This document shows positions 3,450 through 60,170 of a stretch of 64,000 nt of DNA, in pieces. Position 1 is the stretch's first letter; each line of letters opens with the position of its first letter. The notes under the pieces are model-generated. The model saw only the letters and a list, made by a program, of their open reading frames with translations, made no database searches and had not been told where the DNA came from. The DNA comes from Haloarcula salinisoli. Its GTDB lineage: Archaea; Halobacteriota; Halobacteria; Halobacteriales; Haloarculaceae. Location: positions 248,001 through 312,000 of the forward strand of contig NZ_RKLQ01000001.1 in assembly GCF_019599405.1 (NCBI RefSeq), written 5' to 3'. The translations under genes were made by a program, and so were the position numbers.

Positions 3450-3758
3450 AGCCAGAAAGCCCCGGCCGTCTGAACTCGGGAGGCTCGTTGCGGTCCTCGC
3501 TCACTTCGTTCGCTGTGGTCCTTACTTCGCCTGCCTTCGTTCAGACGGCCGCCCCTTTCAGTCCCACCCAGCGCTGTTTGACCAGCCGGCTACGGGTGGG
3601 ACTGAAAGGGGCCGTGCGCTCGACGAACCCCGACGAAGCAAGCACTGGAGCGAACGAAGTGAGCGAAGCGCGCAGCGAGTCGCGGGAGTCGAGCGCACGG
3701 GGGCTTTCTGGCTGTCCGCAGTGGCGGTCACCTGTACTGCTATCGGGGCTTTCTGGCT
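3450..3758. repeat. Three-arm inverted-repeat element, copy A
   Basis: This fills most of the 440-bp gap between truD and the next gene; the short open frames across it are not genes. The left end AGCCAGAAAGCCCC (3450-3463) pairs with GGGGGCTTTCTGGCT (3699-3713), and a second right end occurs at 3745-3758. Arm 1 is closed by GGCCGTCTGAAC (3464-3475) and GTTCAGACGGCC (3539-3550). Arm 2 is CCCCTTTCAGTCCCACCC (3552-3569) with its exact complement at 3594-3611. Arm 3 is GTGCGCTCGAC (3614-3624) with GTCGAGCGCAC (3688-3698). The arm 1 interior is largely the reverse complement of the arm 3 interior, including AGCGAACGAAGTGAGCGA in arm 3. I see no coding capacity for a transposase. Confidence 0.85.
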
Positions 3759-30905: not shown

Positions 30906-31204
30906 AGCCAGAAAGCCTTGCTAGCTGGTGGGGTCGACAGCGTTGCTGACAGCCAGAAAGTCCCTGGAGACGCTGCGCGTCTCCTGACCCTCGCGGAGCC
31001 GTCGGCTCCGCTCAGTCCCACCCGTAGCCGGTTGGTCAAACAGCTCTGGGCGGGACTGAAAGGGGCCGCGCTCTCGACGAAGCACGGCGAAGTAAGCACC
31101 GCAGCCAACCGTAGGGAGGCGAGGAGCACAGCGAGCCGCGCGAGAGCACGATAGACGAGCGCAGCGAGTCTATCGGCGGTCGAGAGCGCGGGGGCTTTCT
31201 GGCT
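30906..31204. repeat. Three-arm inverted-repeat element, copy B (arm 1 deleted)
   Basis: Left ends occur twice (30906-30919 and 30951-30963). Arm 1 is missing: the left end runs straight into a 47-nt two-hairpin insert (30965-31011) next to arm 2, CAGTCCCACCC (31013-31023) with GGGCGGGACTG (31048-31058). Arm 3 is complete, closed by GCGCTCTCGAC (31068-31078) and GTCGAGAGCGC (31179-31189). It contains an additional hairpin, CGATAGAC/GTCTATCG with loop GAGCGCAGCGA (31149-31175). The right end GGGGGCTTTCTGGCT is at 31190-31204. It lies between the divergent genes gatB and the coiled-coil gene. The rest of the gap to 31439 holds only the promoter of the latter (TTTATG at about 31409-31414). Confidence 0.8.
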
Positions 31205-38968: not shown

Positions 38969-39376
38969 AGCCAGAAAGCCCCCGACTGCTCGACTCCCGC
39001 GGCTCGCTGCGGTCCTCACTCCGTTGCGGTCCTTACGTCGCCGGGGTTCGTCGAGCAGTCGGCCCCTTTCAGTCCCGCCCATGCCGGCTGACCAATCGGC
39101 TACGGGTGGGACTGAGCGGAGCCGAACGGCTCCGCGAGGGTCAGGAGACGCGCAGCGTCTCCAGGGACTGAAAGGGGCGGCTGCGTGGCGGCTACGCCGC
39201 CACGTTTAACGAGGTCGGCGGAGCCGACCGCGCTTGCTACACGAAGGCGGGAGACGCAAGCACTGCAGCGAACATAGTGAGCGAAGCGCGCAACGAGCCC
39301 CCCGAGTGTAGCTGGCCGGGGCTATCTGGCTGTTGGCAGTGCTACTGACCCGGAGTACTGCCGGGGCTTTCTGGCT
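38969..39376. repeat. Three-arm inverted-repeat element, copy C
   Basis: The left end is AGCCAGAAAGCCCCC (38969-38983). Arm 1 is CCGACTGCTCGAC (38982-38994) with GTCGAGCAGTCGG (39050-39062). Arm 2 is CCCCTTTCAGTCCCGCCC (39063-39080), whose partner strand is split by a 48-nt insert (39116-39163) flanked by the 8-bp direct repeat GGGACTGA. Arm 3 is looser: GCTACAC (39236-39242) can pair with GTGTAGC (39306-39312), and more small hairpins, including GTGGCGGC-TAC-GCCGCCAC, precede it. Two right ends follow (one with CTATC for CTTTC, one intact). This accounts for most of the 545-bp gap before the PhzF-like gene; no gene is present. Confidence 0.82.
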
Positions 39377-51338: not shown

Positions 51339-51382
51339 CTGCGACTGCAGCGGTCTGTAGTTCGACAGCGTCTCTTTCGGAG

Positions 51383-51632
51383 AGCCAGAAAGCCCCCGAG
51401 CTATCAGCTCCCGCGGCTCGCTGTGCTCCTCGGCCTCCGGTGCTTGCTTCGCCGGGGTTCGCTGATAGCTCGGCCCCTTTCAGTCCACCCGTAGAGGGTT
51501 GGCCAGCCGGCTTGGGTGGGACTGAAAGGGGCCGACCGCTCGACGTTCGAGGCGACGCAAGCACCGCAGGGAGCGAAGTGACCGAGGAGCGCAGCGAGCC
51601 GCAGTAGTCGAGCGGTCGGGGGATTTCTGGCT
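51383..51632. repeat. Three-arm inverted-repeat element, copy D (most regular copy)
   Basis: The ends are AGCCAGAAAGCCCCC (51383-51397) and GGGGGATTTCTGGCT (51618-51632). Arm 1 is CCGAGCTATCAGC (51396-51408) with GCTGATAGCTCGG (51461-51473). Arm 2 is CCCCTTTCAGTCCACCC (51474-51490) with GGGTGGGACTGAAAGGGG (51514-51531). Arm 3 is CCGACCGCTCGAC (51532-51544) with GTCGAGCGGTCGG (51607-51619). The stems directly adjoin one another, so the whole can fold as a cloverleaf-like four-way junction. The interiors of arms 1 and 3 are reverse complements over most of their length. It occupies the 420-bp gap after metG; no gene is present. Confidence 0.88.
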
Positions 51633-51759
51633 GTTGGCAGACTGCTTGACGGCGACTGCTGCCGAGACTATTCGGCTGCGCAAATCTGCACTCACGTCGC
51701 GGAATCCGACCACAACTAGTCGCCGTCCCTTTTTGTAGCTCGCTGTCCTAGCGACGGCC

Positions 51760-59885: not shown

Positions 59886-60170
59886 AGCCGGAAAGCCCCC
59901 GTGCTATGGGCTCCCGCGGCTCGTTGTGCTCCTCGCTCGTTTCACTCGCTGCGGTGCTTACGTCGTCCTCAGAAACCGAAGATTTCTGATGGGTGGTTCG
60001 AGAGACGCCGACGGCGTCTCTCGTCATCCCGAAAATCGAAGATTTTCGGACGACTGCGCAAGAGCTCCGCTCTTGCGAACGCCGGGGTTCGCCCATAGCA
60101 CGGCCCCTTTCAGTCCCACCCATGCTGGTTGATCAAAGAGCGCGGGGTGGACTGAAAGGGCCGTTCACGA
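59886..60170. repeat. Three-arm inverted-repeat element, copy E (arm 3 missing)
   Basis: The left end is AGCCGGAAAGCCCCC (59886-59900). Arm 1 is CCGTGCTATGGGC (59899-59911) with GCCCATAGCACGG (60091-60103). It is enlarged by a hairpin insert containing AGAAACC-GAA-GATTTCT, GAGAGACGCC-GAC-GGCGTCTCTC, CGAAAATC-GAA-GATTTTCG and CAAGAGC-TCC-GCTCTTG. Arm 2 is CCCTTTCAGTCCCACCC (60105-60121) with GGGGTGGACTGAAAGGG ending at 60160. Arm 3 and the right end are absent. The remaining sequence to 60274 contains the promoter of the glycosyltransferase gene. There are no genes in the gap. Confidence 0.8.

What the first reader, a model, noticed from the sequence alone, without database searches (positions are those of the whole stretch)
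51383..51632. A family of three-arm inverted-repeat elements with covarying stems (five copies)
Copies at 3450, 30906, 38969, 51383 and 59886 share terminal inverted repeats AGCCAGAAAGCCCC / GGGGCTTTCTGGCT and a conserved middle hairpin CCCCTTTCAGTCCCACCC. The stem closing arm 1 differs in each copy that has it (GGCCGTCTGAAC, CCGACTGCTCGAC, CCGAGCTATCAGC, CCGTGCTATGGGC) and so does that of arm 3 (GTGCGCTCGAC, GCGCTCTCGAC, GCTACAC, CCGACCGCTCGAC). In each case the opposite strand of the stem changes to match. This shows directly that structure is preserved while sequence varies. It could be an RNA with a cloverleaf fold, a DNA cruciform, or a non-autonomous mobile element. I cannot name a described family for it.
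Basis: seen in the sequence. Interest (0 to 1): 0.82.

Follow-up and report, generated by a model that had tools for sequence, protein, structure and literature searches.

The report
Shuffling DNA cloverleaf repeats in haloarchaea
Salt-loving archaea carry dozens of apparently mobile, non-coding DNA insertions that fold into a cloverleaf of hairpins; the hairpin stems keep perfect pairing while their sequence is swapped from copy to copy and species to species, which shows structure being conserved at the DNA level without conserved sequence.

Summary
The five window copies belong to a family with 163 terminal motifs and at least 67 multi-motif elements in this Haloarcula genome, found in 44 of 292 class genomes and 18 of 77 genera. 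Covariation is real: 18 stem pairs in 88 arms are 95.9% paired against 60.4% in shuffles. G-T wobbles are almost absent and nested hairpins nearly all have C-NNN-G triloops, so the fold acts as DNA, not RNA. The elements are insertions: the site at 51383 is filled only in this genome and its sister species, and many sites are clean gaps in relatives. At shared sites in the sister species both arms are no more alike than arms from unrelated sites, while the apex is sometimes retained. Best reading: a non-autonomous, intergenic palindromic mobile element, nearest to haloarchaeal SMRs/MITEs and bacterial REP/BIMEs, whose hairpin arms behave as exchangeable cassettes and landing pads for smaller double-hairpin elements. 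The mobilising enzyme is unknown; a RAYT-like Y1 transposase does not track copy number.

The parts
51383..51632 (.). Element 4, canonical four-motif form X-arm1-Y'-apex-Y-arm3-X'
   Evidence: DNA fold z-score -11.8
51383..51396 (+). left terminal motif X (AGCCAGAAAGCCCC)
51397..51472 (.). arm 1: stem CGAGCTATCAGC / GCTGATAGCTCG around the conserved arm core
51474..51531 (.). middle hairpin Y'-apex-Y
51532..51619 (.). arm 3: stem CCGACCGCTCGAC / GTCGAGCGGTCGG around the reverse-complement arm core
51619..51632 (-). right terminal motif X'
51339..51719 (.). approximate extent of the DNA absent at the orthologous site in 28 of 30 genomes compared, between the stop of the upstream gene (methionyl-tRNA synthetase-like, ends 51338) and CTAG at 51716-51719
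3450..3758 (.). Element 1: X, arm 1, middle hairpin 3552-3611, arm 3, X' 3700-3713, second X' 3745-3758 (45 bp further out)
30906..31204 (.). Element 2: two X motifs 45 bp apart, arm 1 replaced by a double hairpin (about 30964-31012), middle hairpin 31006-31065, arm 3 with a nested hairpin, X' 31191-31204
38969..39376 (.). Element 3: X, arm 1, middle hairpin interrupted by a double hairpin (about 39104-39165), arm 3 with a second double-hairpin insertion, X' 39318-39331 and 39363-39376
59886..60161 (.). Element 5: X, arm 1 with nested hairpin units (about 59968-60079), middle hairpin 60104-60161; arm 3 and X' missing

Best explanation
It is a non-autonomous palindromic mobile DNA element of haloarchaea. 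Shown: each unit is a large inverted repeat (X-arm1-Y'-apex-Y-arm3-X', with about 31-53 bp of end sequence beyond each X) inserted in intergenic DNA; each arm is closed by a 12-bp stem whose sequence differs from copy to copy but whose two sides match; arms are replaced and the element gained, lost or eroded on short time scales; smaller double-hairpin units are nested in the arms. Inferred: the working form is a folded single strand or extruded cruciform in which outer stem, two arms and middle hairpin meet in a four-way junction. An unidentified recombinase acting in trans recognises the conserved X/Y boxes plus the hairpins and not the stem sequence. Stem variants arise and stay matched because whole arms are exchanged between copies or re-copied across the hairpin (template switching), not mainly by slow compensatory point mutation.
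For: Covariation: 95.9% of cells paired against 60.4 +/- 0.9 in shuffles, covariation score 0.822 against 0.207, every slid register fails; 74 distinct stems of 92 arms, 995 of 1020 pairs Watson-Crick. DNA-level fold: 3 G-U cells in the 12-bp stem; 83 of 89 perfect nested hairpins have 3-nt loops, almost all closed by C-G, against 0-4 hairpins in all in shuffled sequence. Insertion: at 51383 only this genome and G002 are filled among 30 compared; clean gaps of 2, 10 and 14 bp where this genome holds 452, 264 and 536 bp; eroded X-x remnants in relatives. Turnover: orthologous arms have median identity 0.51 and 0.64 against 0.52 and 0.62 for non-orthologous pairs, while an apex variant seen at one listed site per genome is shared at the same site (C2:1314331) and the rare short apex at two further shared sites. 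Patchy distribution: 18 of 77 genera, 0-27 exact copies per genome.
Against: No general target-site duplication; one site has a 13-bp direct repeat that is single in G025. No copy was seen carrying a transposase between X motifs; spans of 0.6-6 kb between convergent motifs look like neighbouring elements with genes between, inspected only by their longest ORFs. Y1 transposase presence does not track copy number. Position is often shared between sister species, which selection for a host function would also give. The recombinase and any transposition event are unobserved.
Confidence: 0.6

Rival explanations
1. Host-useful structured sites (REP/BIME-like): DNA hairpins kept at intergenic positions as binding sites for a chromosome-organising, transcription-terminating or topology protein, with sequence free to vary so long as the cruciform forms.
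For: Intergenic setting, gene starts typically about 80-90 bp and gene ends about 40-50 bp away; most G002 element loci fetched align to element loci of this genome; conserved X and Y boxes.
Against: 28 of 30 genomes compared lack it at 51383; 248 of 292 class genomes have no exact middle hairpin, though the pattern is strict; loss and erosion are common.
Confidence: 0.17
2. Passive palindromes: after an old insertion, hairpin template-switch repair keeps the arms complementary and generates inversions, nested hairpins and 45-bp end duplications, with no recombinase and no function now.
For: Near-perfect Watson-Crick stems with few intermediates; apex nearer to its inverse at a few orthologous sites; exact 45-bp tandem end units in G002.
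Against: Stem position 8 stays T-A in 80 of 85 arms and the X/Y boxes stay conserved across genera, so sequence recognition persists; class-wide spread and clean gaps need insertion at some time.
Confidence: 0.15
3. Structured non-coding RNA family (cloverleaf RNA, attenuator or terminator).
For: Cloverleaf geometry and strong covariation; intergenic setting.
Against: Wobble pairs about 0.3% of paired cells in the main stem, triloops in nested hairpins, arms replaced wholesale between sister species, no Rfam match.
Confidence: 0.05

Closest known systems
SMR-A short mobile repeats of Haloquadratum walsbyi (PMC3119063)
   Same: Haloarchaeal, non-coding, inverted terminal repeats, no target duplication, unrelated to known transposons, up to tens of copies, insert into palindromes of other elements, mobilisation enigmatic; the nested double hairpins behave like this.
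   Different: SMR-A are about 110 bp; here the main unit is about 250-430 bp with two covarying arms, and it hosts the smaller elements. SMR sequences were not compared.
MITEs
   Same: Short, non-coding, terminal inverted repeats, high copy, empty sites in relatives.
   Different: No parent transposon with these termini was seen and no general target-site duplication; stems vary between copies.
REP/BIME elements and RAYT transposases (PMC2817692)
   Same: Extragenic palindromes, mosaic, complementary substitutions in stems noted in Stenotrophomonas, substitution rate above that of neighbouring genes.
   Different: The only Y1 transposase hit in this genome carries no X or Y box nearby and Y1 presence does not follow copy number in the genus; the unit is far larger, with a four-way geometry.
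Double-hairpin / repetitive hairpin-forming elements of fungal and sponge mitochondria (PMC2800124)
   Same: Mobile-looking single, double and triple hairpins in intergenic DNA, scattered distribution, tandem arrays.
   Different: Organellar; X/Y boxes and arm exchange are not described there, and sequences were not compared.

Membership tests
MITE | terminal inverted repeats | tested here: met
   X/X' plus end sequence with tip ...AACACTGCC about 34 bp out in a subset of flanks
MITE | target-site duplication | tested here: not met
   56 elements, no excess over mismatched flanks; one exception (C2:774433, 13 bp)
MITE | termini shared with an autonomous transposon in the genome | tested here: inconclusive
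   no transposase noticed between convergent X motifs among the listed hits; longest ORFs only, not exhaustive
SMR (Haloquadratum) | inverted terminal repeats without target duplication | tested here: met
SMR (Haloquadratum) | termini unrelated to known transposons | tested here: inconclusive
   no transposon database could be searched; none noticed locally
SMR (Haloquadratum) | length about 110 bp and insertion into palindromes of other mobile elements | tested here: not met
   main unit 250-430 bp and intergenic; only the nested minis fit
REP/BIME | extragenic palindromes in high copy | tested here: met
REP/BIME | cognate RAYT (Y1) gene flanked by the repeat, presence tracks abundance | tested here: not met
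   G001, G008 and G025 have 7, 6 and 4 exact middle hairpins without a Y1 hit; G013, G016 and G022 have Y1 and none; no X/Y box at the local Y1 gene
Structured RNA family | covariation with wobble tolerance | tested here: not met
   covariation yes, G-U about 0.3% in the main stem
Structured RNA family | discrete transcript | not testable with these tools
   no RNA-seq held

The most novel reading that the evidence does not exclude
A class-wide family of DNA-level structural elements in which hairpin arms are exchangeable cassettes: a recombination system recognises folded DNA by shape plus short boxes, swaps or re-copies whole arms so that new stems are always self-complementary, and measures end units in 45-bp (multiple-of-three) steps. 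This would be a mode of mobile-element evolution in which structure is inherited and sequence is not.
Probability: 0.3. Interest if true: 0.88.

Novelty: new variant of a known kind. Interest (0 to 1): 0.72.

Why it matters
It is an unusually strong natural example of nucleic-acid structure conserved at the DNA level with almost no sequence conservation: 88 sequences, all 12 pairs of the main stem with changes on both sides, wobble nearly absent. It warns that covariation tests, usually read as proof of a structured RNA, can be passed by DNA hairpins; a practical discriminator is wobble rate and loop size. It also offers a tractable system for archaeal hairpin recombination: cultured haloarchaea, many copies, naturally filled and empty sites. 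In two public plasmid records examined, no feature is annotated over the match, and none of the papers that held one of the six motif strings is about haloarchaea.

Tried and rejected
Rfam: nothing at gathering threshold. CRISPR-like reading of the 14+31 bp end repeats: units are identical tandem copies or diverged relatives, not unique spacers. Coding explanation for the 3-bp phasing of CTAG and X: host stop codons other than TAG are not phased and no consistent ORF runs through. Y1 transposase as mobiliser. Viral carriage: none in phage records, 3 pattern matches in 2.9 million viral contigs, not examined further. Hymenobacter, Actinophytocola, Haloechinothrix, Paludibacteraceae and Streptococcus hits of the middle-hairpin pattern lack the arms and X box and look like unrelated palindromes. 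Search for the tip GGCAGTGTTTAG elsewhere in the genome: no clear excess over control.

Full report
Observation. The window lies in a 4.03-Mb Haloarcula genome (G000). The terminal motif X (AGCCAGAAAGCCCC) has 163 matches genome-wide against 1 in the control; the exact middle hairpin 27 against 0. I collected 84 motif clusters, of which 67 have two or more motifs. The canonical order is X-arm1-Y'-apex-Y-arm3-X', and arm 3 is the reverse complement of the arm-1 type, so the whole unit is itself a palindrome. Variants lack an arm, lack both (a 59-bp X-apex-X' hairpin at C2:45638), or have tandem end units at exactly 45 bp (up to XXX...xxxxx at C2:324210).

Covariation. Among 92 arms of this genome 74 of the 12-bp stems are distinct; in the 85 arms scored, 995 of 1020 pairs are Watson-Crick, with 5 G-T and 9 A-C. 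On an alignment of 88 arms from this genome, G002 and other genera, 18 named pairs are 95.9% paired (shuffled 60.4 +/- 0.9; slid registers at most 46%), all 18 show changes on both sides, and the covariation score is 0.822 against 0.207. I set the structure from the sequence, which favours it over slid registers, but the size of the difference and the presence of all four Watson-Crick types at several positions leave little doubt. Position 8 is nearly always T-A, so some sequence recognition remains.

DNA, not RNA. In the 12-bp stem only 3 cells are G-U. RNA families normally tolerate several per cent wobble (general knowledge, not tested here). Small perfect hairpins nested in the arms (stem >=8) number 89 in 67 elements against 0-4 in shuffled sequence; 83 have 3-nt loops, nearly all C-NNN-G, with varied loop sequence. 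Minimal triloops closed by C-G suit DNA hairpins and cruciform tips, whereas RNA favours tetraloops (general knowledge; one search found no suitable paper in the library to cite). There is no Rfam match. The DNA fold of the 51383 copy has a z-score of -11.8; its minimum-energy form pairs arm 1 with arm 3, so the cloverleaf and the long hairpin are alternatives. A weak excess of A-C over G-T on the X-to-Y strand lies mostly at the last two pairs in other genera, and I do not build on it.

Insertion. The 51383 copy lies between a methionyl-tRNA synthetase-like gene and a small putative membrane protein gene (named by eye). Among 30 Haloarcula genomes compared at this locus, only G000 and G002 hold the element; the others have short intergenic stretches where the downstream gene is found, and G007 has a possible remnant of X'. 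For further sites I found empty and eroded counterparts in G002, G024 and G025: for example C1:582672 (452 bp here, 2 bp in G002), C2:1121441 (536 and 14), C2:1064519 (264 and 10). These show that the inserted unit extends about 31-53 bp beyond X. A subset of ends has the tip AACACTGCC about 34 bp out. There is no general target duplication; C2:774433 has a 13-bp direct repeat that is single in G025.

Turnover. Of the G002 element loci fetched, most align by flanks of about 93% identity to element loci of this genome (the set was chosen by the middle hairpin, so this is not an unbiased rate). At these shared sites the arms are no more alike than random pairs (median 0.51 against 0.52 for arm 1; 0.64 against 0.62 for arm 3), and the 31-bp ends differ too at most sites. 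The apex is different: C2:1314331 shares an identical apex variant seen at one listed site in each genome, and the rare short apex is shared at C2:363999 and C2:1267033, so these elements appear to descend from a common insertion whose arms were replaced. At a few sites the apex is nearer to its inverse, and a few arms seem to have changed side, but stem similarity by chance is high and I treat this as suggestive. Compensatory point evolution is expected to be slower than neutral drift; here stems change faster than flanking genes, so exchange or re-copying of whole arms, or repeated re-insertion, is the better account (inference).

Distribution. Exact middle hairpins occur in 44 of 292 genomes and 18 of 77 genera of the class, with zero control matches (a strict pattern, so a lower bound), in 19 of 30 Haloarcula genomes, and DNA similar to the element lies on plasmids of many haloarchaea but not in phage records. 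In other genera the outer stem changes together on both sides (AGCCAGAAAG, ACCTCGAAAG, CAGCAAGAAAG) around a constant GAAAGCCCC (by eye).

Mechanism. Shown: DNA-level pairing signature, insertion, loss, arm replacement, nesting. Inferred: recognition of folded DNA by a recombinase in trans. A Y1 (IS200/605, RAYT-type) enzyme is not supported. No autonomous copy was recognised (not exhaustive).

Novelty. The nearest described things are SMRs and PATEs of Haloquadratum, MITEs, REP/BIMEs and mitochondrial hairpin elements. No paper on haloarchaea in the held library contains the motif strings searched, but most subscription journals are not held. I rate it a new variant of a known kind, with a real chance that the arm-exchange process is new.

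Noticed in passing
flanks of elements in G000 and G002: CTAG, rare elsewhere, is about 11-fold enriched within 100 bp outside X, and its distance from X is fixed modulo 3 (68 of 80 in G000, 31 of 34 in G002); every third base of the ends is C-rich, and tandem end units are 45, 57 or 33 bp. Unexplained.
   Followed up: partly
G000 C1:1396742, C2:1134803: The same 65-bp nested double hairpin sits at two loci outside the large elements; by eye the reading frame around C1:1396742 looks like a histidine-kinase gene, so the mini-element may be tolerated inside a gene.
   Followed up: no
window 38969-39376 and 30906-31204; C1:569326; C3:94531: One double-hairpin type interrupts the middle hairpin and is flanked by a repeated CAGTCCC, which looks like a short target duplication of the nested element.
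   Followed up: no
L224, L233 (G002): Exact tandem copies of the 45-bp end unit (about 5 each) in G002, single in G000 at the same sites; a candidate strain marker.
   Followed up: no
plasmids CP002989.1 and CP007061.1: Two different haloarchaea give matches with the same score and identity to arm 3 on their plasmids, possibly a shared copy.
   Followed up: no
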